Shown here: positions 1-28,362 of the stretch, in pieces | Layout of the letters: the number at the start of each line of letters is the position of its first letter | How positions within the stretch are numbered: position 1 is the first letter of the stretch | IMG/VR virus record: IMGVR_UViG_3300045135_002720 | Span: 1-28,454 of that record | Strand: one strand, 5' to 3' | Source: a virus | DNA length: 28,454 bases | Position numbers and translations under genes: made by a program | Notes under the pieces: generated by a model | Seen by the model: the letters and a program-made list of their open reading frames with translations, nothing else | What the model was told of the DNA's origin: nothing | The model's database searches: none

Positions 1-737
1 GTTAGCTGTGCTTTTGGTGCAAACTTAATCTGATCACTAGCTTGACCAAAACCCAATACTCCAGCTTTTTGAGCAGTTTGTAATGGGGCTGGTGAATCAG
101 TGTGCTGGGTAATAATATCAGCACCTTGAGAAATTAATACTTTAGCAGCATCTGCTTCTTTACTTGGATCATACCATGTGTTTACCCAAATGATATCTAA
201 ATCAAAATCTGGGTTTACAGATGTTGCTCCAAGATAGAAAGAATTAATTCCACGAATTACTTCTGGAATTGGAAAGGATGCGATATAACCAGCCTTTCCA
301 TTTTTGGACATGTGACCAGCTAGCACGCCTTGTACATAACGGCCTTCATAAAAACGAGAAGAATAAACTGCAAGGTTATCTCCAGTTTTATATCCCGTAG
401 CATGTTCAAACAAAATGTCTGGGTTTTCTTTTGCTACTTTAACAGTTGATTCCATATATCCAAATGAGGTTGTAAAAATCATATCAACACCGTTTGAAAT
501 CATGGTACGCATTACGCGAGCAGCGTCAGGCCCTTCGGGAACAGATTCTACGTATGTAGTCTCTACTCTATCTCCAAAAGTTTCTTCAACCAATTGACGA
601 CCTAGATCGTGTGAATAAGTCCACCCATGATCTCCAATTGGTCCTACATATACAAAACCGACTTTAAGAGGTTCTGCATAAGCGGTTGTGGCTACAGAAA
701 GTGCTAATGCACCTGCAGCAAGCAGTCTTTTAATCAT
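1..737 (-). CDS. BMP-family ABC transporter substrate-binding protein (3' end outside window)
   Basis: This is the N-terminal 245 residues of a periplasmic solute-binding protein of the BMP/PnrA-Med family, whose members deliver nucleosides or related solutes to an ABC importer. The start ATG is preceded by an AAGGAG site. Residues 1-21 form a signal peptide (basic MIKR, hydrophobic core, AYA before E22). There is no lipobox cysteine, so the product should be soluble and periplasmic rather than a lipoprotein. The mature part opens KVGFVYVGPIGDHGW and continues with family-typical stretches such as VPEGPDAARVMRTMISNGVD, FEHATGYKT and YEGRYVQGVLAGHMSKNG. The family usually has about 320-360 residues, so roughly a quarter is missing beyond the window edge. 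It is the last gene seen in a phage-like minus-strand array, which suggests capture from a bacterial host. The ligand cannot be told from sequence. Family assignment is firm; role in infection is inference. Confidence 0.9.
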   Translation of the reverse strand, partial: MIKRLLAAGALALSVATTAYAEPLKVGFVYVGPIGDHGWTYSHDLGRQLVEETFGDRVETTYVESVPEGPDAARVMRTMISNGVDMIFTTSFGYMESTVKVAKENPDILFEHATGYKTGDNLAVYSSRFYEGRYVQGVLAGHMSKNGKAGYIASFPIPEVIRGINSFYLGATSVNPDFDLDIIWVNTWYDPSKEADAAKVLISQGADIITQHTDSPAPLQTAQKAGVLGFGQASDQIKFAPKAQL

Positions 738-10501: not shown

Positions 10502-11089
10502 TTATGATTCATCACAAGCTTTTTTGACCTCAAGATCTAATGGTTGTTCTGATACTGCTGATACATACTTAGTATTAGTGTCAAACAACTCATGGTCTTC
10601 TATCCATATTGGAATGTTGAGAATTTTACTCAAATGAGTTAAGTAAGCCTCTTTATATAAAAACAGAGTTTCAGTAGATAGAAAAAAGTCTGGATTTAAA
10701 TAAGGAAGTTGTTTAAGGAACTTATCATATGTTTTACCGCCTCTTACTCGCTCTTGTTGAGTTTTAAGTATGTTTTGATCTCTTGAAATAACTGCCACTT
10801 TAACGTTATATATTTTTTTAGCATTTTGAATGAAAGCATGATATGAAGGAATACAAGCTTTTTGGTTCCTAAAATAAGGACACGAAATAGAAGTAAAATT
10901 ATGACGATGCCCAGTATCCTCTATTAAGGAAGGGTCATTCCACCAAGCACTAAATGGCTCATGATGATGACCCTCCCAATATTGTTTCATTCTCCATCCA
11001 TTTACAAATGGATGTTTAGAGAATACTTTAGACCACAGGTGATTACCTGACCCCTGCGGCCCCGTTAGAATTAGCAGATTGTTTTGCAT
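10502..11089 (-). CDS. Sulfotransferase-like P-loop protein
   Basis: A 195-residue protein with an N-terminal nucleotide-binding loop LLILTGPQGSGNHLW (residues 5-19). The GSGNH form, with Asn where kinases have Lys, is typical of sulfotransferase-like P-loops rather than ATPases. A second candidate motif is VAVISRDQNILKTQQER (about 98-114), which could be the 3'-phosphate-binding Arg region of PAPS-using enzymes. Histidine- and tryptophan-rich sequence (WEGHHHEPFSAWW) may shape the acceptor site. It overlaps the 3' end of the symporter gene by 47 bases. Substrate and activity are unknown; it could instead be a nucleotide-binding protein of a related fold. Confidence 0.6.
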   Translation of the reverse strand: MQNNLLILTGPQGSGNHLWSKVFSKHPFVNGWRMKQYWEGHHHEPFSAWWNDPSLIEDTGHRHNFTSISCPYFRNQKACIPSYHAFIQNAKKIYNVKVAVISRDQNILKTQQERVRGGKTYDKFLKQLPYLNPDFFLSTETLFLYKEAYLTHLSKILNIPIWIEDHELFDTNTKYVSAVSEQPLDLEVKKACDES

Positions 11090-12509
11090 TACTTAATACC
11101 AGTGTTAAAATAGGTGAACCAAAGATCGCGATTAGTGTTCCCATAAACGCAGTATCAGTATATCCTAATTTACCAGCAACAAACAAGATTTCTCCTACAG
11201 TGGCTGGTATGAGAATACCCCAAAACATTCCAAATTCATTTACCCACTGAGGTTTAAGAACTGAAATCATTGAGGGCAACCAAACAGCGGCTCTCAATAC
11301 AGCAAAGAAAAGGAACAAGTATACAAGTTGCATACCTGGTATATTAGCTACTGCCAGTCCTGCAACTGCCAAAGCTATCATACCCCAGCGAGCATAGTTG
11401 ATTACAGCTTTATCATCTGAACCACCTTTGAACTTGTTAAAGATGTCATGACCTGTCATGTTTGCAACGGATGCAAATTGTGAATCAAGAATTGCAACTA
11501 ATCCTGCAAAAATCATGAAAGCAAAAAAGATAGATGCAACTGGCGGCAAAAGTGTACCTATAACAATGGCGTTAGTGGTGCCAACCATGTTATTAGGAAT
11601 TCCTAACTCCAGTCCTGCAGCGAGAAACCCTAACATTCCCATAAGAATTGGAATCACAATAAAAATAAAAGATGCAATTACATATGATGGTATGATTGAT
11701 TTAAGTTTAATTGAAAAAGCACGTTGATAGAAAGAGTTGTCACCCCAAGGTCCACCCATGTGTCCTAAAAAGGCTGCTGCACCAAAACCTGTAAAGATAC
11801 CCCAAGCAAAAGGAGTTCCAAATATTTGAGCACCTTCACCTGTGCGACCACCTAGTCCTGAGACTACAACGTCCCAACCACCTGCACTTGAGATGGCCCA
11901 AGGCACAAGTACAACCGCACCTGCCCATACTACGCAGATTTTAATCATCTCTGTAACAACTGTTGCTTTTAGTCCTGTTCTAAACGAGTAGAGAATTGCA
12001 ACACCAGCCATTAAAAAAGTAGCAAGTGTATAATCAATTCCTGTTAAAACTTCAACCGTTTTAGAACCTGCTAAAAGGTTGATTGCGAAAGCACAAGTTG
12101 CTAAGATCATCATCTCTACTACAAAAAGTCCTTGTAGTCTTCCAGAGAATTTTTCTCTGAGATAGCCTGAAAAGGTAAATCCATCAGGCTTGTTAATCCT
12201 AATACGTTTCGCAAACCATGCAAAAGCTCCTAGAGTTAAGAAGTTTCCTAGACAAAACCAAAAAAGTCCTACTAAGCCATTGACATAAGCTTGTTGCGCA
12301 GAGATAAATAACCCAGGCGCCCATAGCCATGCTGCAGCAACACTCATACTGCCTTGAACAGTATTAAGTTCTCTACGAGCTACTAAGTAAGAGGTTTTAG
12401 TATCATTATACCCTCTTGAATACCAATAGGTCATTGCAAAGGCAACAACTCCATAGGCTAATAAAATAAGCAAGCCTGTACTAGGCTCAAATAAAGGAAA
12501 TAAATTCAT
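11043..12509 (-). CDS. Sodium/solute symporter (SSS family)
   Basis: A complete 488-residue secondary transporter of the sodium:solute symporter family, predicted in the inner membrane with about 13 helices. It starts with helix LLILLAYGVVAFAMTYWY. This is followed by the family-typical SYLVARRELNTVQGSMSVAA, AWLWAPGLFISAQQAYVNGL, then GLFWFCLGNFLTLGAFAWFA. Conserved loop features include GPWGDNSFYQRAFS and the FAGLVAILDSQFASVANM helix, corresponding to the Na+-site helix of the LeuT fold. Length is normal for the family and no frameshift is seen, so it is probably functional. SSS members carry sugars, amino acids, urea, acetate and more; the solute here cannot be assigned. It overlaps a methyltransferase gene upstream and a sulfotransferase-like gene downstream, so it is embedded in the phage operon and not a contig artefact. 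Confidence 0.92.
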   Translation of the reverse strand: MNLFPLFEPSTGLLILLAYGVVAFAMTYWYSRGYNDTKTSYLVARRELNTVQGSMSVAAAWLWAPGLFISAQQAYVNGLVGLFWFCLGNFLTLGAFAWFAKRIRINKPDGFTFSGYLREKFSGRLQGLFVVEMMILATCAFAINLLAGSKTVEVLTGIDYTLATFLMAGVAILYSFRTGLKATVVTEMIKICVVWAGAVVLVPWAISSAGGWDVVVSGLGGRTGEGAQIFGTPFAWGIFTGFGAAAFLGHMGGPWGDNSFYQRAFSIKLKSIIPSYVIASFIFIVIPILMGMLGFLAAGLELGIPNNMVGTTNAIVIGTLLPPVASIFFAFMIFAGLVAILDSQFASVANMTGHDIFNKFKGGSDDKAVINYARWGMIALAVAGLAVANIPGMQLVYLFLFFAVLRAAVWLPSMISVLKPQWVNEFGMFWGILIPATVGEILFVAGKLGYTDTAFMGTLIAIFGSPILTLVLSNAKQSANSNGAAGVR

Positions 12510-15405: not shown

Positions 15406-15672
15406 TTATTTCTCCAATTCTAATTCATATTGGTTGTTCAACGTATATCGTTTTACAACCTCTTTACTTGCATCTTCTAGTAAGGGGATTAGAGATGTAA
15501 CTTCATCTGCTGGTATGGAAAATCCAGATTTAGTAGGATACCATTGACCAGTATCCCCATCCATAGAATACTCTCTAATGTGAAGATAAAGTGTTTCTCT
15601 AAATTCATTTATTGTAACTTTAACTGCATTTCCGTTAGGCTTGTGAAACGCTGTTCCAAAATCTATATTCAT
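15406..15672 (-). CDS. PC4-like (transcriptional coactivator p15) ssDNA-binding protein
   Basis: An 88-residue protein with a PC4 domain. The core is VTINEFRETLYLHIREYSMD, then GDTGQWYPTKSGFSIPADEV and the C-terminal helix TSLIPLLEDASKEV. PC4 proteins dimerise and bind single-stranded DNA; bacterial and phage members are known, including one in T5-like phages. Here it may act in replication, recombination or late transcription. The start overlaps the upstream oxygenase stop (ATGA), and a GGAGAAAT site lies before the next gene. Confidence 0.78.
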   Translation of the reverse strand: MNIDFGTAFHKPNGNAVKVTINEFRETLYLHIREYSMDGDTGQWYPTKSGFSIPADEVTSLIPLLEDASKEVVKRYTLNNQYELELEK

Positions 15673-17601: not shown

Positions 17602-18214
17602 AACTGGTTTCTACTAATTTCTCATAATCTTTTGTTTTAGCGCCGTGAACAATAATATGGTATCTATCTTCATCACTGTTATTAATGTAAGCGTGTTCGT
17701 TACCGACATCTAGTAGCATAGCTACTCCTGGTTTAAAGGGAACATATCCTTTGTGTCCACTCATTTTCATTAAACAACCTTTGGGATGATTTAAAGCCAT
17801 ATTAATAGGGGATAATTTGCTGTCAAAAGTGTCAACGTGAGGGGTGATATAACCACCTGGTTCTAACAGCATGAATCTAAGCCTAAAATATCTGCTATAA
17901 GGGAAATCATTCTTAAAAAAGTTAGTTGTCACCGGACATCTATCTGATATTTCAGTCCATTTATAGGGAGTATCATTATTTGATTTATATCCGTATTGTT
18001 CATAATGATTAGTTTTGTATGCATCAATGCCATGAATGCATAAACTTCTCCAGCCTTTATGCCTATAACCCCCAACGCCGTCTTGATCTCTGTGTTTAAC
18101 AAATTCATCTTTTAGTGCAACAGCTTCTTCATACATTTTTTCATAAGGAAAAGTGATGTCAAGTTGCAACCAAGGTAAATTACTTTCGTTTACTATCCAA
18201 TTAAAATCTTTCAT
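17582..18214 (-). CDS. Fe(II)/2-oxoglutarate-dependent oxygenase, aspartyl beta-hydroxylase-like
   Basis: A 210-residue protein with the iron triad H126-x-D128 (YITPHVDTF) and H174 (GNEHAYIN), and the co-substrate arginine R184 (DEDRYHIIVHG). The block RLRFMLLEPGGYITPHVD is typical of aspartyl/asparaginyl beta-hydroxylase-type folds. It probably hydroxylates a protein side chain or small molecule; the substrate is unknown. Its start overlaps the Fe-S carrier stop by four bases (ATGA), so both iron-related genes are translationally coupled. Confidence 0.82.
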   Translation of the reverse strand: MKDFNWIVNESNLPWLQLDITFPYEKMYEEAVALKDEFVKHRDQDGVGGYRHKGWRSLCIHGIDAYKTNHYEQYGYKSNNDTPYKWTEISDRCPVTTNFFKNDFPYSRYFRLRFMLLEPGGYITPHVDTFDSKLSPINMALNHPKGCLMKMSGHKGYVPFKPGVAMLLDVGNEHAYINNSDEDRYHIIVHGAKTKDYEKLVETSYEKNGH

Positions 18215-18750
18215 GAGTACATGTCCAATAAGTCTTCATCAAAAGCAAAACTAGTACCACAACCGCAGGAAGCTCTTGCTCCTGGATTTTCTACGGATAG
18301 TTGTTTATTCATACCGTTTACGACTAGATCTATTGTGCTACCATAAAGAAATTTTATACTTTCAGAATCAACCAATGACGGTGGATCTTCACAAAATTTG
18401 ATATCTCCATCTTCGACTTCTTCCGCGACATCAAATAAATAGTTGAAGCCACTACACCCTCCACCTGATACGCCAAACCTGAACATTTGACCTGGTTCAA
18501 GATTATTAAGAATATACATCTTAGCTTTTGCAGTTAAGTTTGGAAGTTGTCCGTTGTATTCAGATTCAATTATTGGAGCGTGTCCATGAAAATCTGCTAA
18601 TACTTTTTCTTCAAGAGTTGGCTCACGATTGTTGTGTCTATCAATTACGGCTTGTGCAAGTCGTGAAACTTCAGCTTTATCTACTTCTGCTTCAAGTTCT
18701 GCAAACCACTTATCTAAATCGTTTTGGTCTGGCATCTGATTTGTTGACAT
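18211..18750 (-). CDS. A-type iron-sulfur carrier protein (IscA/SufA/ErpA/HesB family) with N-terminal extension
   Basis: A 179-residue protein. From about residue 70 it is a complete A-type carrier domain with the three conserved cysteines: C99 in SGGGCSGFNY, and C162 and C164 in ASCGCGTSF. These proteins bind iron or Fe-S clusters and pass them to apoproteins. Residues 1-69 are an extra acidic, helical segment (WFAELEAEVDKAEVSRLAQA) not found in the ~107-residue bacterial proteins. It may tether the domain to a partner. A near-perfect Shine-Dalgarno lies before the start. The gene overlaps the glycosyltransferase upstream by 41 bases and the oxygenase downstream by four. Assignment to the family is firm; the client protein is unknown. 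Confidence 0.9.
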   Translation of the reverse strand: MSTNQMPDQNDLDKWFAELEAEVDKAEVSRLAQAVIDRHNNREPTLEEKVLADFHGHAPIIESEYNGQLPNLTAKAKMYILNNLEPGQMFRFGVSGGGCSGFNYLFDVAEEVEDGDIKFCEDPPSLVDSESIKFLYGSTIDLVVNGMNKQLSVENPGARASCGCGTSFAFDEDLLDMYS

Positions 18751-21658: not shown

Positions 21659-22391
21659 TTTTTATCTCCTTGTCCAGCGTTTTATAAAATTTTGAGTTTG
21701 CCCATTTCGTCTGGAGTCTTTCAAGGTTTCTGCTTTCCATGGCTGATTTACTATCATTTCTTATTCTTTTTGTATCTCTTGATTCGTGATGGAAAAGTCG
21801 TACAGGTATCTGATAGATGTCGAAACCGTTTTGTCGTCCTGATAAGCAGTAATCGACGTCTCTGTTGTAAGTCCATTCAAAGGAGGGGTCAAAGTCGCCC
21901 ACGGAATTAATAAACTCCCGTCTAAGGTAGCAACCTCCAAATGTTGTCCAGGCAACAGATCTCGTGGAATCGTACTGTCCTGTATCAGTTTCAAGTTCCT
22001 GCTTAAAGGCTTGTTTGTTTTCCAATATAAGTCCACTTCCGAAATGATCTGGTTTATTGTCTGTGAACTTTCCTCCTGCACACTGTACGAAATATTCATC
22101 ACTCTCGTTTTTTGCTGGGTACAACAGCAAACAACCAAACATTCCTGCTTCTGGATATTTTTCAACATACTCTAAAACCTCCTCAAACCAACCATCATGG
22201 TGAGGAGCCATGTCAGCGTGAAGTATAAATATATCATCATCTGGAAATTGTTTCCACATTTTTTGAAACATTAAGTCACAACCAATTGCAGCGGCATCAC
22301 GTTCATAATAAACATCATATTCCCAAAATTGTTGTTTATGACCTTTGATTTCATTTTCAAAAACATATGGGGTAATAATTTTTACACTCAT
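21651..22391 (-). CDS. GT2-family glycosyltransferase
   Basis: A 246-residue GT-A glycosyltransferase. DIFILHADMAPHHDGWFEEV at about 48-67 holds the HAD metal-site variant of DxD. TTFGGCYLRREFINSVGDFD at about 147-166, followed by DVDYCLSGRQNGF and FHHES, matches GT2 acceptor/catalytic regions. I chose the ATG at 22389-22391 (MSVKII) because it forms an ATGA junction with the upstream methyltransferase stop and sits 8 bases after AGGA; ATGs 6 and 18 bases upstream are possible. Confidence 0.82.
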   Translation of the reverse strand: MSVKIITPYVFENEIKGHKQQFWEYDVYYERDAAAIGCDLMFQKMWKQFPDDDIFILHADMAPHHDGWFEEVLEYVEKYPEAGMFGCLLLYPAKNESDEYFVQCAGGKFTDNKPDHFGSGLILENKQAFKQELETDTGQYDSTRSVAWTTFGGCYLRREFINSVGDFDPSFEWTYNRDVDYCLSGRQNGFDIYQIPVRLFHHESRDTKRIRNDSKSAMESRNLERLQTKWANSKFYKTLDKEIKNG

Positions 22392-22918
22392 TTCCATTTT
22401 CCTAACCATAATTCATTTTGTTGACTTATATCTGCATATTTTTCTATTTTTTCTCTCCACCAGGAGGGTTTTTTTACTGTTTGATGCAGATTATGATTTT
22501 TAAATTTTTCTGGTGGTGGAGTGCTGGCGTAATCATATGCGATTGTGAAAGCAAATCTATTGCTAACCCTTTTCATTTCTAAAAATGCAGGATCTATTTG
22601 TTCAGGTAAAAGATGTTCAAGAACATCCCAAGCTGTAATAAAATCAAATTCCTTATTTTTAAAAGGTAAATCTAAAATATCAGCAATGTAATCCGCTGAT
22701 TTACACGCAAAGTCAACTCCAATAGCTTTTTCTACTCCAAGTGTTTTGATCTGTTGAATAAAATTGTTATGACCACAACCTACATCTAGTAAACTTGTAG
22801 GGTTTAAAGCAGCTATGGCTTCAAGGGCTTTATGCCCGTGATTACTTTTTCCATAGTATGAGTAAGCCTCATCATTGTAAATAAGTTCATATACTTCTTT
22901 TTCTGGGTTAAATTTCAT
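22388..22918 (-). CDS. Class I SAM methyltransferase (Methyltransf_11-like)
   Basis: A 176-residue methyltransferase. Motif I is LLDVGCGHNNF (about 43-53) and IGVDFA gives strand 2. DILDLPFKNKEFDFITAWDV, followed by LEHL, gives the motifs typical of ubiE-like enzymes. PSWWREKIEKYADISQQNEL follows near the C-terminus. The substrate is unknown. It overlaps the MptE-like gene upstream and the glycosyltransferase downstream by four bases each. Confidence 0.85.
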   Translation of the reverse strand: MKFNPEKEVYELIYNDEAYSYYGKSNHGHKALEAIAALNPTSLLDVGCGHNNFIQQIKTLGVEKAIGVDFACKSADYIADILDLPFKNKEFDFITAWDVLEHLLPEQIDPAFLEMKRVSNRFAFTIAYDYASTPPPEKFKNHNLHQTVKKPSWWREKIEKYADISQQNELWLGKWK

Positions 22919-23295
22919 CTAATTATGTACTTTTTCTCTGTTTCTTGAATTTGCCCTAATTGATCAAGTCTATTTTCAAAACCAAATAGATACAAAGTAT
23001 CAAAACCCATCTGATTGGCTAAACAAACTGCGTTTAACCCAGAGTTTAGGCTGTTTGTGTTATAGTGTCGTTTTGAATCAAATTCAAAAACTCTACCTGT
23101 TCTTCTATATTTTGGTGCTACTTTTGGTGTGGTAAATATTAATTTATCAGTTTTTGAAAGTAACTCTCTTACCATAGGCTCGTCTACAGCAAATATTAAA
23201 TTTGCCCATGCGCAATGAAAGTTAGTGCTAATCGTAAACTTATCCGGCTCAACAAGATTTTTAGTAGTTCCTCCACCCACTATATTACATTTCAT
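22915..23295 (-). CDS. MptE/DUF115-like protein
   Basis: A 126-residue protein with a Rossmann-like opening (CNIVGGGTTKNLV). NSLNSGLNAVCLANQMGFDT, followed by LYLFGFE, occurs at about 81-107. This resembles the 6-hydroxymethylpterin pyrophosphokinase MptE-like/DUF115 and sialyltransferase-like folds found in glycan and flagellin-glycosylation loci. It is shorter than most relatives, so it may be a minimal or reduced version. The start is crowded: AAGGA directly precedes the ATG, and the upstream 52-codon gene overlaps it by 11 bases. Confidence 0.55.
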   Translation of the reverse strand: MKCNIVGGGTTKNLVEPDKFTISTNFHCAWANLIFAVDEPMVRELLSKTDKLIFTTPKVAPKYRRTGRVFEFDSKRHYNTNSLNSGLNAVCLANQMGFDTLYLFGFENRLDQLGQIQETEKKYIIR

Positions 23296-23443
23296 TCCTT
23301 TTACTTTCTAATTCAGAGATACGTTTTTGTAACCAGTCTCTTACTTTTGGTTTCTTTTTCTTAATATCAAGTATACTTAATTCATGTTTTAGTATTGCAA
23401 TTACTGCCCAGTCAACGCTACTTAAATCAGTTTTTCCGTCCAT
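23285..23443 (-). CDS. Small charged protein, 52 residues
   Basis: A short open frame beginning MDGKTDLSSVDWAVIAILKH and ending in a Lys/Glu-rich helix (RISELESKRNEM). A GAGGAG ribosome binding site lies about 9 bases before the ATG. It fills the otherwise empty 126 bases between the SDR gene and the MptE-like gene, overlapping each by 22 and 11 bases. It could be a small helical adaptor. No function can be given. Confidence 0.68.
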   Translation of the reverse strand: MDGKTDLSSVDWAVIAILKHELSILDIKKKKPKVRDWLQKRISELESKRNEM

Positions 23444-24429
23444 GTTTTCGGAGTCTCCTCTGTTATAAACTCAATTGGTAAATGATATTCAAAGTCTCTA
23501 ACTTGTGGCCTAATCCAAGCTACCATTTCTTCTATAGTTTTATCTACAGTAATAGTTGCGTTATAGTTCCATTCTTCTCTAACTTTTTGACTAGAGCAAA
23601 ATGCATTTTTTACTTCACGAGGTCTGTCAGGAAAGTGGGTCAGACTCGGATATTTTCCACAATGATGTCCGACTTTGTAGGCTAACTGTTTAATGGTGAT
23701 TTCGTTGTCGTCAGGTCCAATATTATATACTTGTCTTGCAATATCTCTATCAGATTGCATAATCTTATATATAGCTTGAATACAATCTAAAACATTTGAG
23801 AAAGAACGCATTTGCTCTCCGTCACCATAAACTACTATTGGCTTTTTTTGTAAACAACGACTAATCATGATTCCTACTACGTTTCTAAAGGGATCATAAT
23901 ATCTTTGACCTACTCCAATAACATTATGAGGAACTACAGTTACAAAGTTTAATCCATGAATCTCATTTAACAACTCTAGATGTTCTTCAGCATGAGCTTT
24001 AGCTAATCCATACGGATCTACAGGTTTCCTAGGCATATCTTCTCTAAATGGCGGTACTTGATCTCCATACCTTGCCATTGATGAACAGTTTATTAGAAGT
24101 CTAACATTGTTAGCTAAACAAGCAGAAGCAACTGAAACTGTACCTGAAACAATTGAATTTACAGTACAAGCAGGTGAAAAAACACTTAAACCCTCATAAG
24201 GTAGTGCAGCAGTATGAAAAACACAATCTGCACCTTCACACAATTCTGTCATCAAGGCTGTGTCTTGAATATCACCTCTAATATATTCTACAGCTTCAGG
24301 TACGTTACCTTCAACGCCTCCAATCATGTTGTCTATACCAACTATTTTGTAGTTTCCTTTAGCTACTAGGTATTTAGCCATTGTACTACCTAGAAGCCCT
24401 GAAACTCCTGTTATTACTACTTTTACCAT
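23422..24429 (-). CDS. NAD-dependent nucleotide-sugar epimerase/dehydratase (extended SDR)
   Basis: A 335-residue extended short-chain dehydrogenase/reductase. The NAD-binding motif is TGVSGLLG (7-14). The catalytic Y140-x3-K144 is in DPYGLAKAHAEEH, with the serine pair in LLINCSSMARYG upstream. GDGEQMRSFSNVLDCIQAIY at about 212-231 is the sugar-nucleotide-binding region. It probably interconverts or dehydrates a UDP- or dTDP-sugar, in the manner of UDP-glucose 4-epimerase. The exact substrate is unknown. An AAGGAA site lies before the start, which overlaps the RmlB-like gene by seven bases. Confidence 0.88.
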   Translation of the reverse strand: MVKVVITGVSGLLGSTMAKYLVAKGNYKIVGIDNMIGGVEGNVPEAVEYIRGDIQDTALMTELCEGADCVFHTAALPYEGLSVFSPACTVNSIVSGTVSVASACLANNVRLLINCSSMARYGDQVPPFREDMPRKPVDPYGLAKAHAEEHLELLNEIHGLNFVTVVPHNVIGVGQRYYDPFRNVVGIMISRCLQKKPIVVYGDGEQMRSFSNVLDCIQAIYKIMQSDRDIARQVYNIGPDDNEITIKQLAYKVGHHCGKYPSLTHFPDRPREVKNAFCSSQKVREEWNYNATITVDKTIEEMVAWIRPQVRDFEYHLPIEFITEETPKTWTEKLI

Positions 24430-25388
24430 CTGAATTCCTTTTTATAATGTTGTACTAACTCTAATAGTTCTTTATCAAAATCTTTCTGAGGACTCCATCC
24501 AAGATTTTTAAGAGGCTCACAAGAAATTGCATATCTTACATCTTGTCCCGGTCTGTTATACGTAAAATCCAAAAACTGATTTGCGTCTGGCACTTTACGT
24601 TTTAGATTACCCATAAAATAAGCACTTAAAATTTTGTTTACAGTTTCTAAGTTAGTCTGCTCGTATTCAGAAGATATATTATATATACAATTTCTTTCTG
24701 CTTTTTCATATAGTGTCATAATAGCATCAGCCGTATCTTCTGAGTGAGTCCACGTTCTAATCGGTTTTCCCTCGTCATGCAGTTTTATTTTTTTACCTCT
24801 TGATAGTCTTTTTACGGCTAAAGGTATGAGTTTTTCTGGGTATTGATAATATCCATAATTATTAGAAGGTCTTGCTATGATATAATCAATTCCGTAAGTT
24901 CTAGAATATGCTTGTATTAACAAATCTGCCATCGCTTTAGATGCAGCATAAGGATTTGATGGTTTCATTTGTGAAGCTTCATCAAATAATCCGTTTGTTA
25001 GGTCGCCATAAACTTCATCAGTTGATATTTGAAAAAACAGCGGTTTATCAACCCTTAAAACAATTCTTTTATTTATCATATCAAGTAAATTTCTCACACC
25101 ATTTACGTTTGATTCAATAAAAGCTTCACAAGATTGATTACCTATATCTACATCAGATTCTGCTGCAAAGTTAAATATTACATCACACTCTGGTAACCAA
25201 GAGTTTAAATTAGCAATGTCTGTTTGAACCCACTTGAAATTTTTAAGATTAGCTCTAGTTAATGATTTATTATGGACATACGTAAATTTATCTATTCCAT
25301 ATACTTTCCACCCCTCACCCAAGAGTTTCTTAGTAAAGGTTGTACCTAGAAATCCAGCAAAACCTGTAACAATTGCAGTCTTAATCAT
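24423..25388 (-). CDS. dTDP-glucose 4,6-dehydratase-like (RmlB-like) SDR enzyme
   Basis: A 321-residue extended SDR. The cofactor loop is TGFAGFLG (8-15). ISTDEVYGDL (121-130) carries the catalytic D124-E125 pair diagnostic for RmlB-type dehydratases. Y147-x3-K151 lies in NPYAASKAMADLL. RPSNNYGYYQYPEKLIPLAV and IRTWTHSEDTADAI (RmlB: YxRDWLxVEDHA) fit the sugar-binding region. The product would be a 4-keto-6-deoxy nucleotide sugar, the usual substrate of the adjacent DegT aminotransferase. I chose the second ATG (25386-25388) because GGAG is 7 bases before it but only one base before the first. Confidence 0.88.
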   Translation of the reverse strand: MIKTAIVTGFAGFLGTTFTKKLLGEGWKVYGIDKFTYVHNKSLTRANLKNFKWVQTDIANLNSWLPECDVIFNFAAESDVDIGNQSCEAFIESNVNGVRNLLDMINKRIVLRVDKPLFFQISTDEVYGDLTNGLFDEASQMKPSNPYAASKAMADLLIQAYSRTYGIDYIIARPSNNYGYYQYPEKLIPLAVKRLSRGKKIKLHDEGKPIRTWTHSEDTADAIMTLYEKAERNCIYNISSEYEQTNLETVNKILSAYFMGNLKRKVPDANQFLDFTYNRPGQDVRYAISCEPLKNLGWSPQKDFDKELLELVQHYKKEFRW

Positions 25389-26367
25389 TATCATTCTCCA
25401 TCAAAGGATAACATATAATTCTGTCATATACTTGTTTTGATATGGGTAATCCTCTCAAAGGCACATAATACTTTTTCTGCTCATCATTTTCTGGTAGTTT
25501 GTTTTCTAAATGTATGTAAGGAAGACACATAGGTAAAAAACCATTATCATCAGCATGATTTGGAAGTATATCTCCCATATCTTGGCTATTCAATTTAAAT
25601 AGCTCATCAAAATATGAGTCTAAAATTTTGTCTCTTAAACTATCTATGTGAAAGGTATCCCAATATTGGAGAATGGCAGCTGCTGATATTTCGCTAATTT
25701 TAAAGTTACTTCCTCGCTCATTGAATTTTCTATCAACAAATCCAAAATTACAAGCAATTCTAACTTGTTCTTCAAGGTGTTTGTCAACAATAGCTAGTCC
25801 ACCTTCCCCAAAACCAATAGGTTTAGTGTGGTGTAAGGAAATAAAAGAAGCATTACCTAAGTTACAAGAGTTTATTCCGTTATAAAAAGAGTATGGAGTT
25901 GCTGCGTTATCAAATACTACTATCTTATCGTGTTTTTGCGCAAAATGTAGTATCTTATCTAGATCTTGTAAATGACCAAAACAGTTGGTCACTATCAAAA
26001 GTTTTCCATATTCATTCGCTAAATCATCGGTTAAGGCAAAATTTAAATCTTCATCGAAATCAACAATAATCGGTCCTGTTGCTGGACCTTGCGATGCGCT
26101 GGGGAAGTTAAAATCTTGAGTAACAACTCTGAGACTTTTTTCTGAAGTTCTTTGAAAAGAGAATATGATAGCGTGGAGAGCAGCGGTACCAGAGCATGTT
26201 GCTATAACAGCTTTTGAGTCATCTATTTTAAGCATTTCTTTTGCACGTTCTTCCAGTAAAGAACTTGCATGTCCACCGTTTGCAAATCGATTATGTTTAT
26301 GTGCGTGTAATAGATAGTTTTCTAAACCAACATAATCAATTGATTTTTTAGATATCAATGTTTTCAT
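25381..26367 (-). CDS. DegT/DnrJ/EryC1/StrS-type sugar aminotransferase
   Basis: A 328-residue PLP-dependent aminotransferase. The cofactor lysine is K182 in ISLHHTKPIGFGEGG, the family signature. D153 in VVFDNAATPYS would pair with the pyridine nitrogen. ATCSGTAALHAIIF (56-69) binds the phosphate. The family transfers an amino group from glutamate to a keto-sugar nucleotide. It is about 40 residues shorter than typical members, mainly at the C-terminus and interdomain loops. Its position between an RmlB-like dehydratase and an acyltransferase makes an amino-deoxy-sugar product likely. Confidence 0.92.
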   Translation of the reverse strand: MKTLISKKSIDYVGLENYLLHAHKHNRFANGGHASSLLEERAKEMLKIDDSKAVIATCSGTAALHAIIFSFQRTSEKSLRVVTQDFNFPSASQGPATGPIIVDFDEDLNFALTDDLANEYGKLLIVTNCFGHLQDLDKILHFAQKHDKIVVFDNAATPYSFYNGINSCNLGNASFISLHHTKPIGFGEGGLAIVDKHLEEQVRIACNFGFVDRKFNERGSNFKISEISAAAILQYWDTFHIDSLRDKILDSYFDELFKLNSQDMGDILPNHADDNGFLPMCLPYIHLENKLPENDEQKKYYVPLRGLPISKQVYDRIICYPLMENDND

Positions 26368-27115
26368 ATACTATTTTCCAATTAACATATGGGGTAATAC
26401 AATTATCTTGTAAGTGCGTTGCGTGACCTGGTATTGGGCATAAAGCTCCAACCTGTGAAAAAGCTTTCCAAGTCCACGAATCGTCAGCAAACACACCTGC
26501 TCTTAGTGCTTCAAACTTAAATCGCGCCCACGTTGACCCAAGAGCAGCTATTGTTAGCGTGGCACTAGGTATGGTTCTAAGATGTCCATAAGGTCCTGCG
26601 TGTAATTCACACTCTTTACTTCTGTCTAAAGTATATCTATCAGGATAGTCGTATGGGGCATAAAAACCCGTATATCCCTGCTCAAACACGTGTTTCATAC
26701 AGTGAAGGGCGTGTTCGACATGAATATAATCATCTTCACATACATAAATGATTTCTGATGGATTAGTTTCTGCTGTTTCAATTATAATTTCCATTAAATC
26801 TTGACAAGCATTTACGATTACTGGATGATACTGGGGATACGCGTGATTTTCTCTCAGTTCATTAAGAGGTGTAATATCTTTAATTTGGAAGGTAGCTTGA
26901 GTATTCTCTTTCATCCAACGCAGAGTTTCATATGAGGTTCTATCGTTAATGATAATGATAGTGTCTTCTGGCGTAAGTCCTTGTTGCAAGGACATATAAC
27001 ACTTGCGTAAGATTTCAAGCTTACCTTTACCTTCCCAACGAGGTTTATCTTTAGTGCCGTCCCCTAAAGATCCTGGAGACAAGTTCGCTTCACAACTTCT
27101 AAACAATACTATCAT
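26348..27115 (-). CDS. Glycosyltransferase-like protein (GT-A fold)
   Basis: A 255-residue protein. EDTIIIINDRTSYETLRWMK (about 50-69) and EIIYVCEDDYIHVEHALHCM (about 120-139) resemble the GT-A fold, with EDD as the metal-binding DxD equivalent. A later segment has Trp and His residues (DSWTWKAFSQVGALCPIPGH, then ATHLQDN) that may coordinate metal or bind acceptor. No close named family is recognised. It overlaps the acyltransferase gene by four bases (ATGA) and the aminotransferase gene by 20. Confidence 0.65.
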   Translation of the reverse strand: MIVLFRSCEANLSPGSLGDGTKDKPRWEGKGKLEILRKCYMSLQQGLTPEDTIIIINDRTSYETLRWMKENTQATFQIKDITPLNELRENHAYPQYHPVIVNACQDLMEIIIETAETNPSEIIYVCEDDYIHVEHALHCMKHVFEQGYTGFYAPYDYPDRYTLDRSKECELHAGPYGHLRTIPSATLTIAALGSTWARFKFEALRAGVFADDSWTWKAFSQVGALCPIPGHATHLQDNCITPYVNWKIVYENIDI

Positions 27116-27732
27116 GGTTTATCTGTTACTATCCCTGATTGAAAAAATTGTCTGTTTTGCATATCTTCAAATAGTGTTTCACCAGCAGACAAAGTATTTT
27201 CGTTTCCTATCTGAGTTTTAGGAACAATTTGTGTGTTAACTCCTAAAAAGTTTTCATCACCCATTTTAACAAATCCCATGCATCCAGCATACGGAGACAA
27301 TACATTGTTATCACCGAAAACAGCATCATGATGAATTGACGCATAAGCATTGAAGTTATTAAAACTACCAATCTGTGCATTTGCGTTCATCATAGAATAA
27401 GAACAAAACACATTTCCTATTCCCATTTTAGCTAGTGATGATATATGTGCTGTTTCAGCGACAACATTCGGAAAATGCATAATACTTTTCGTATACTTAC
27501 TTGTAAAATGTTCTATAAACTGTCGCCTCCACTTTTTATTTCCTGTGCCAAGGATGAATCGTGAGTTTTCCCGATAGTGAAATTTATCAGAACCTTCATC
27601 GCCAATAAGAATAGCTTTACCGTCATTCATGACAATAAAGCCTCCAAACTCGTCTTCAATTTGTTGTGGTAAAATAATTTGTGTGAATACTTCTTGGGCA
27701 AATCCTCCGTTGCCTAAAATGTATACTTTCAT
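27112..27732 (-). CDS. PglD/NeuD-family sugar O/N-acyltransferase
   Basis: A 206-residue acyltransferase. The N-terminal Rossmann-like domain opens KVYILGNGGFAQEVFTQI, as in PglD/NeuD. The C-terminal half (from about residue 90) shows hexapeptide repeats of a left-handed beta-helix (AHISSLAKMGIGNVF, NNFNAYASIHHDAVFGDNNV, GDENFLGVNTQIVPKTQIGN). The HH at about 134-135 contains the likely catalytic histidine. It would acetylate the amino-sugar nucleotide made by the adjacent aminotransferase. It is the first protein gene after the tmRNA, 18 bases from its predicted 3' end, with a GAGGGAA site before the ATG. Confidence 0.85.
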   Translation of the reverse strand: MKVYILGNGGFAQEVFTQIILPQQIEDEFGGFIVMNDGKAILIGDEGSDKFHYRENSRFILGTGNKKWRRQFIEHFTSKYTKSIMHFPNVVAETAHISSLAKMGIGNVFCSYSMMNANAQIGSFNNFNAYASIHHDAVFGDNNVLSPYAGCMGFVKMGDENFLGVNTQIVPKTQIGNENTLSAGETLFEDMQNRQFFQSGIVTDKP

Positions 27733-27749
27733 GATTCCCTCTTTATGTT

Positions 27750-27996
27750 ATGCCACACTTCTGTTCCAAGGCAGTGGCCGCCCGATAGATTATGCCGCTA
27801 AGGGCATATCCATAGGTGCAAAGTTATCGTTTGCAGTTATTTAAGTCTTGCGGTTGAGGTCGCTTGCGCACCTGCTTCTCGTTTTGATTTTTACTACGTC
27901 TGTCGATCCTATTTCATCCCCTCTGAAACTGTAGTCGCCTACAAATTGGTGGAGATGCGGGGTACTGCCCCCCGGTCCAGTCCGTCTATTCTATCT
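27750..27996 (-). ncRNA. ssrA: Permuted two-piece tmRNA (transfer-messenger RNA)
   Basis: Read on the minus strand, the acceptor piece comes first. The T-arm CGGGG / GGCAGTA / CCCCG lies at 27958-27974, then the acceptor 3' strand CATCTCC (27951-27957) and ACCA ending at 27947. A 25-base spacer with hairpin TGTAG-GCGA-CTACA follows. The coding piece then begins GGGGATG (27915-27921), pairing with CATCTCC over 7 bp, including the G3-U70 pair read by alanyl-tRNA synthetase. AGGATCGACAG resembles the tmRNA D-region. A hairpin AGGTGC-GCAA-GCGACCT lies at 27857-27873. The resume frame GCA...TAA (27790-27834) encodes ANDNFAPMDMPLAA and is preceded by TAACT. After the stop, TCTATC (27784-27789) can pair with GATAGA in the acceptor piece (27990-27995). 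tmRNA rescues stalled ribosomes and tags the nascent protein for proteolysis. The permuted order is typical of alphaproteobacteria. The outer ends are approximate. Confidence 0.92.
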
Positions 27997-28362
27997 CTAC
28001 TCAAACGAAGCACTAATATCTTTGTATACTAAGTCTAATCCTTCAGTAAGTCCTGTCAAAATAGCTATAGCAAGCGCACCAAAGAATAAAATTAAAGGAC
28101 TTGATAAAATTAACCACCAATAAGTGCGAAATATACCGTGTCCGTATTCAAGACGATATGCACGTTTGCGTTCAAACCAATGGGCTATCCACCGTATAAA
28201 CGCTTTTATTTTTCCAGTTACCCACTCTCCCACAAAATGTCTTGCTAGACGCATTACAATGAGAACGGGACTACTAATTACTTCCCAAATTATAAGTAGT
28301 ATATCTACGGCAAAGTCAACACAATTATCAATTGTGAACCACTTTTTAATTTTTCGTAGCAC
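27997..28362 (-). CDS. Membrane protein, 121 residues
   Basis: A protein with probably two or three membrane segments: about residues 14-38 (VDFAVDILLIIWEVISSPVL) and 82-104 (WLILSSPLILFFGALAIAIL). Between them is a basic, Trp-rich, possibly amphipathic region (KAFIRWIAHWFERKRAYRLE). No family is recognised. The start appears to be a GTG at 28360-28362, two bases after the stop of the previous gene; no good ribosome binding site is seen, so translation may be coupled. Its stop codon directly abuts the tmRNA acceptor piece. Confidence 0.68.
   Translation of the reverse strand: MLRKIKKWFTIDNCVDFAVDILLIIWEVISSPVLIVMRLARHFVGEWVTGKIKAFIRWIAHWFERKRAYRLEYGHGIFRTYWWLILSSPLILFFGALAIAILTGLTEGLDLVYKDISASFE

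What the first reader, a model, noticed from the sequence alone, without database searches (positions are those of the whole stretch)
27790..27834. Distinct degradation tag ANDNFAPMDMPLAA
The resume frame GCA to TAA has an opening shared with alphaproteobacterial tags (A-N-D-N-aromatic-A; Caulobacter begins ANDNFAEE). It has a proline- and methionine-containing middle (PMDMP) that is unlike them, and a C-terminal LAA suited to ClpXP recognition. A phage tag differing from the host tag in the SspB/ClpA-binding part could alter which protease handles tagged proteins. It may also identify the host lineage.
Basis: partly seen in the sequence, partly recalled or inferred. Interest (0 to 1): 0.7.

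Follow-up and report, generated by a model that had tools for sequence, protein, structure and literature searches.

The report
Marine phage two-piece tmRNA tag
A marine virus of bacteria carries its own copy of a bacterial ribosome-rescue RNA; the 14-residue "destroy me" tag it encodes is a real but ordinary variant of a tag type common in such viruses, and its odd middle part seems tied to a fold in the RNA rather than to a new protease preference.

Summary
Window 27790-27834 (minus strand) is the tag frame of a circularly permuted, alpha-type tmRNA (Rfam RF04321, 111.5 bits; RF01849, 104.1 bits) encoding ANDNFAPMDMPLAA. The gene has a fully paired acceptor stem with the G3-U70 alanine pair and a 25-nt intervening segment, in a marine T5-like phage contig.

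A scan of 84,980 bacterial and archaeal species genomes found no copy, but the identical tag sits in two other viral contigs, near-copies (MDMQLAA, MDLRLAA, EDMPLAA) occur in others, and cultured roseophages carry "APMEM" tags. A Rhodobacterales replicon encodes ANDNRAPMAMAA, so a P/M middle is not foreign to alphaproteobacteria. The ANDN start and C-terminal AA are kept, so a protease switch is unsupported.

Possibly new: the PMDMP codons form the 5' arm of a hairpin whose 3' arm is the AA-stop codons plus downstream bases. Across phage tags the silent third bases of codons -4 and -2 covary (22 of 27 pair; 8.5 expected). The same tags ride on different tmRNA bodies. In relatives, not in this window, the excised intervening segment holds small genes under purifying selection.

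The parts
27947..28011 (-). tRNA-like 3' piece of the permuted tmRNA (T arm, 3' side of acceptor stem CATCTCC, ending CCACCA); its first bases overlap the end of the upstream ORF
   Evidence: RF04321 and RF01849 alignments; acceptor strand and CCA located by script
27922..27946 (-). 25-nt intervening segment to be excised; UUGUAG-GCGA-CUACAG hairpin, no ORF
   Evidence: IVS length 25
27749..27921 (-). mRNA-like (coding) piece, 5' end GGGGATGAAATAGGATCGAC; 3' end approximate
   Evidence: RF01849 ends at 27749, AACAGAA motif; acceptor strand GGGGATG pairs 7/7 with CATCTCC, with G3-U70
27790..27834 (-). tag reading frame, resume codon GCA to stop TAA: ANDNFAPMDMPLAA
27787..27811 (-). hairpin over the second half of the tag and its stop codon; with the outer CC/GG closure it runs from 27816 to 27782 and contains the PMDMP codons as its 5' arm
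   Evidence: covariation in relatives
27997..28362 (-). upstream 121-aa ORF, hydrophobic in part, whose stop codon lies inside the tmRNA 5' end; linked to tmRNA in several other viral contigs
   Evidence: relatives; tmRNA in 6 of 10 of these contigs, not all adjacent

Best explanation
A phage-borne, circularly permuted (two-piece) alpha-type tmRNA. Its transcript is presumably cut by host tRNA-processing enzymes into a tRNA-like piece and a coding piece, charged with alanine at the G3-U70 acceptor stem, and used with the host's SmpB to rescue ribosomes stalled on truncated mRNA during infection, adding ANDNFAPMDMPLAA and sending the product to the host's ClpXP-type proteases. Shown here: the gene, its frame, its acceptor stem and covariation, its family and its phage setting. 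Inferred: processing, charging, SmpB use, degradation. The variable PMDMP middle is best read as a stretch whose codons must form helix 5 with the AA-stop codons and downstream bases, leaving the ANDN start and the AA end as the protein signals; this last step is inferred from covariation.
For: Rfam matches to RF04321 and RF01849 far above cut-off. The acceptor stem pairs 7/7 in the window, and pairs 5-6 are A-U, U-A here against G-C, C-G in most relatives, i.e. changes on both sides (pairs 1-4 were fixed by the search pattern). Phage setting: T5-like PolA (41% to T5-like phages), primase, DnaB-like helicase, D5-like regulator, NAD ligase. Five of 35 PolA relatives' contigs hold a permuted tmRNA. 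Identical tag in L005 (a T5-like phage, PolA 66%) and L006. Two-piece tmRNAs are already reported in marine phages (PMC9004378). No SmpB in the ten contigs searched, so the host's would be used. Hairpin: window fold; silent third bases of codons -4 and -2 pair in 22 of 27 tags, 8.5 expected, 0 of 20,000 shuffles as high; structure 75.5% paired against 25-51.5% when slid.
Against: No RNA or protein data. ARAGORN does not call the window copy. Phage copies score 84-126 bits on RF01849 against 237-310 for bacterial ones, so parts of the pseudoknot region are diverged or lost. The hairpin column pair was picked as the best of about 600 and re-tested on overlapping sequences that are related to each other; the ANDNFAPMALAA group partly lacks it (4-5 of its variants do not pair at that site).
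Confidence: 0.88

Rival explanations
1. The phage tag differs from the host tag in order to reroute tagged proteins to another protease.
For: The exact tag is absent from held bacterial genomes. Position -4 is Pro instead of the common Ala; from own knowledge of E. coli work, ClpA is more sensitive than ClpX to that position.
Against: The N-terminal ANDN block and C-terminal AA are kept. Position -4 is freely Ala, Arg, Gln or Pro in relatives and follows base pairing. The host and its tag are unknown, so no comparison exists.
Confidence: 0.08
2. A decaying remnant: a tmRNA picked up from a host and no longer functional, the tag drifting freely.
For: Lower covariance scores than bacterial tmRNAs; not called by ARAGORN.
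Against: Double compensatory changes in the acceptor stem, intact CCA, open tag with stop, silent-site covariation, presence in many phages.
Confidence: 0.04
3. A decoy that competes with or poisons the host tmRNA rather than tagging proteins, as reported for the tag-less tmRNA of phage DS6A (cited in PMC11915505).
For: A phage precedent exists.
Against: A full tag frame is kept and its last residues are conserved, which a decoy would not need.
Confidence: 0.05

Closest known systems
Permuted (two-piece) tmRNA of Alphaproteobacteria, Rfam RF01849/RF04321
   Same: Gene order (tRNA-like piece, intervening segment, coding piece), acceptor stem, resume region, ANDN tag start, AA end, AACAGAA motif
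   Different: Score about one third of bacterial copies; 14-codon tag rather than the 12 codons of the bacterial replicons sampled here; no sspB neighbour (Sinorhizobium has one)
tmRNA of Methylophilales phage Melnitz (PMC9004378)
   Same: Phage-borne permuted alpha-type tmRNA from the sea; 14-residue tag ANDNYVPVDYALAA
   Different: T4-like rather than T5-like phage; downstream glutamine riboswitch, none above cut-off in the window
tmRNAs of cultured roseophages and Rhodobacter phages (RcXuper ANENFAPMEMRLAA, DSS3P8 and V10 ANINNAPMEMAIAA, MAL1 and MD18 ANTNAAPMEMAIAA)
   Same: Same length and same P-M-acidic-M middle
   Different: Separate branch of the tmRNA-body tree; different residues in ANDNF
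Helix 5 of E. coli tmRNA (PMC1168896)
   Same: A hairpin using the end of the tag frame
   Different: E. coli has the stop codon in the loop; here the loop is mainly codon -3 and the stop codon lies in the 3' arm

Membership tests
Permuted alpha-type tmRNA | Covariance-model match above curated cut-off | tested here: met
   RF04321 111.5 bits (cut-off 47), RF01849 104.1 (cut-off 50)
Permuted alpha-type tmRNA | tRNA-like 3' piece encoded upstream of the coding piece, with an intervening segment | tested here: met
   CCACCA at 27947-27952, coding piece from 27921, 25 nt between
Permuted alpha-type tmRNA | 7-bp acceptor stem with G3-U70 pair (alanine identity) | tested here: met
   GGGGATG with CATCTCC, 7/7 pairs, third pair G-U
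Permuted alpha-type tmRNA | Tag frame with resume codon, stop codon and hydrophobic AA end | tested here: met
   ANDNFAPMDMPLAA*
Permuted alpha-type tmRNA | Cut into two RNA pieces in the cell | not testable with these tools
   needs RNA from infected cells
Functional trans-translation RNA | SmpB-dependent tagging | not testable with these tools
   no SmpB gene in ten phage contigs, so host SmpB is required
Host tmRNA captured recently from a bacterial chromosome | Identical tag in a bacterial genome | tested here: not met
   0 matches in genome contigs

The most novel reading that the evidence does not exclude
In phage two-piece tmRNAs the second half of the tag is set mainly by RNA folding: the codons form a covarying hairpin with the stop codon in its arm (unlike helix 5 of E. 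coli), and tag cassettes are exchanged between tmRNA bodies by recombination. In relatives of this gene the excised intervening segment is itself a gene slot for small proteins.
Probability: 0.4. Interest if true: 0.55.

Novelty: new member of a known kind. Interest (0 to 1): 0.35.

Why it matters
It adds T5-like marine phages to the carriers of two-piece tmRNA, shows that phage tags form their own pool from which this one is drawn, and gives a testable reason (RNA folding) for why tag middles vary while their ends do not. It also warns against using tag peptides to assign hosts.

Tried and rejected
Host tags therefore come from alphaproteobacterial ssrA copies on large replicons in the plasmid collection. 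No SAR11 or SAR116 tag was obtained. Folding energy of tag segments against synonymous recodings gave only a weak trend (mean z -0.51, 31 of 49 negative); for the window tag z was -1.5, p 0.11. The consensus fold by alifold of 25 tags returned no structure, so the helix rests on covariation at two column pairs and on single folds. A megablast of 25 kb of the window against phage records found nothing. The promoter and terminator scan was at chance.

Full report
What is there. The minus strand of 27749-28011 is a circularly permuted tmRNA gene. In transcript order: tRNA-like piece 28011-27947 ending CCACCA; a 25-nt intervening segment 27946-27922 that can form a GCGA-loop hairpin; coding piece from 27921, with the tag frame at 27834-27790 and the AACAGAA motif before about 27749. 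The upstream ORF (27997-28362) ends inside the tmRNA 5' end and the next gene starts at 27732, so the RNA is packed between genes.

Is it a working RNA? The acceptor stem pairs at all seven positions, including the G3-U70 pair that marks alanine tRNAs. At pairs 5 and 6 the window has A-U and U-A where most relatives have G-C and C-G, so both sides changed together (pairs 1-4 were fixed by my search pattern and say nothing). Phage copies score clearly lower on RF01849 than bacterial ones (84-126 against 237-310 bits, where the whole gene was held), so they are a diverged class. ARAGORN calls many relatives but not this copy.

Where it is. The record is a 28-kb virus contig. PolA is 41% identical to T5-like phages, with primase, DnaB-like helicase, a D5-like regulator and a NAD ligase in T5 style. 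PolA relatives up to 90% identical exist only as uncultured contigs; of 35 such contigs, mostly fragments, five hold a permuted tmRNA. None of ten contigs searched encodes SmpB.

The tag compared. A degenerate pattern for the first 11 residues finds two other viral contigs (L005, a 107-kb T5-like phage with PolA 66% identical, and L006) and nothing in the 84,980-species genome set. Near-copies in viral contigs are ANDNFAPMDMQLAA (L064), ANDNFAPMDLRLAA (L066, L070, L082), ANDNFAPMALAA (many) and, in a 203-kb contig, ANDNFADEDMPLAA. Among close T5-like relatives the tags are ANDNFAPEMRLAA (PolA 89%), ANDNFAIEDYRIAA (84%), ANDNFAPQELALAA (83%), ANDNFAPVSLALAA (78%) and ANDNIAPKDYALVA (75%). Cultured phages have APMEM tags: RcXuper, DSS3P8, V10, MAL1, MD18. 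Alphaproteobacterial replicons gave ANDNRAPMAMAA, ANDNRAPVALAA, ANDNFAPVAVAA, ANDNYAEARLAA, ANDNKVALAAVA and VNDNNAGYALAA. A P/M middle is thus neither unique nor foreign. Note that the patterns fix ANDN plus F/Y-A, so the constancy of that start is shown only by the copies found by covariance model or by DNA similarity, where it is common but not universal (ANENF, ANINN, ANTNA, ANDNI, ANDNR).

Tag and body do not travel together. In a tree built without the tag codons, the window is next to L015 (ANDNFAIEDYALAA), L005 is next to L169 (ANDNFAIEDYRIAA), and L006 lies beyond strongly supported branches, although the three tag sequences differ by only a few bases. Tag exchange by recombination, or an old tag kept in some lines, would both give this; the near-identity of the DNA on bodies 62% alike favours exchange. 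Nearest-neighbour supports are moderate (93/86 and 93/89).

Why the middle looks odd. Folded alone, the codons P-M-D-M-P are the 5' arm of a hairpin closed by A-A-stop and the next bases. In an all-pairs scan of 50 tags the best covarying pair was the third base of codon -4 with the third base of codon -2. Among tags with GCN at -4 and GCN or GTN at -2, where both bases are silent, 22 of 27 form a Watson-Crick pair against 8.5 expected, reached in none of 20,000 shuffles; after correction for about 600 pairs scanned this is about 0.03 or better, but the shuffles ignore relatedness. On 25 14-codon tags the structure is 75.5% paired against 25-51.5% when slid, and the covariation score 0.239 exceeds all 500 shuffles (mean 0.129). 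A second pair, codon -7 third base with the third base after the stop codon, gives p 0.0005. In the window, L005 and L064 the helix is shifted by one base, and Pro (CCC) to Gln (CAG) at -4 goes with GCG to GCT at -2. E. coli helix 5 has its stop codons in the loop and was only weakly supported by covariation (PMC1168896); here the stop codon is in the arm. The energy test against synonymous recodings is only weakly in favour.

Mechanism. Most likely ordinary trans-translation from a phage-supplied RNA: processing by host enzymes, alanine charging, host SmpB, tag addition, host ClpXP. Only the anatomy is shown. Reviews place the SspB motif in the tag and the ClpX contact at its C-terminal residues (PMC8138137, PMC9382460); in the E. 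coli tag the SspB motif is N-terminal. Here ANDN and the terminal AA are kept. So the idea that this tag changes the protease has no support beyond Pro at position -4.

Novelty. Two-piece tmRNA in marine phages is published: 53 of 133 distinct phage tmRNA structures, nearly all marine or aquatic (PMC9004378). This is a new member. The covarying tag hairpin and the genes nested in intervening segments of relatives (see noticed in passing) were not found described in the searches made, which cover open-licence papers only.

Noticed in passing
L168, L169, L171, L005, L208, L064, L024, L033, L028, L041, L058, L074, L085, L012, L010, L019 and others: The intervening segment of permuted phage tmRNA genes (18-260 nt) often holds a small ORF of 34-76 codons, several hydrophobic. 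Homologous pairs show dN well below dS (L005/L208 0.06 vs 0.99; L024/L033 0.07 vs 0.51; L168/L169 0.18 vs 0.73; L028/L058 0.08 vs 0.73), and L005/L208 keep the ORF while the tag differs. Longer than in shuffled segments at p<0.05 in 24 of 37 segments of 100 nt or more. Genes nested in the excised part of a tmRNA; no report found in the searches made.
   Followed up: partly
L168, L169, L019, L024, L026: Some nested ORFs end in ...MMGA(N/K) and take their stop codon from the tmRNA's own GGGGGCGAA(A/C)TAGG sequence, so the ORF runs into the mature coding piece.
   Followed up: partly
window 27997-28362 and L192-L206: The 121-aa ORF upstream of the tmRNA has 15 relatives (55-66% identical) in viral contigs including 134-kb and 203-kb ones; six of ten of those contigs hold a permuted tmRNA. 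Possible linked cassette.
   Followed up: partly
L178 (Sinorhizobium meliloti pSymB record): An SspB family gene lies directly downstream of ssrA, linking tag and adaptor in the bacterium.
   Followed up: no
L002 2395-2858 and L003 2238-2705: Roseophages MAL1 and MD18 carry a GOLLD RNA just upstream of the tmRNA, overlapping a tRNA-Arg call.
   Followed up: no
L057 / G052: A marine archaeal MAG contig encodes a permuted tmRNA with tag ANDNFAPLAAAA and the same 76-codon nested ORF as viral contig L023; probably misbinned phage DNA.
   Followed up: no
window 3-737, 11043-12509, 18211-18750, 22388-27732: Host-like cargo in the phage: a PnrA/BMP-type substrate-binding protein, a sodium:solute symporter, an Fe-S biogenesis domain protein, and a sugar-modification block (two NAD-dependent epimerases, DegT-type aminotransferase, methyltransferase, hexapeptide transferase).
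   Followed up: no
window 15406-15672: An 88-aa PC4/p15 transcriptional coactivator-like protein (PF02229, 41.3 bits).
   Followed up: no
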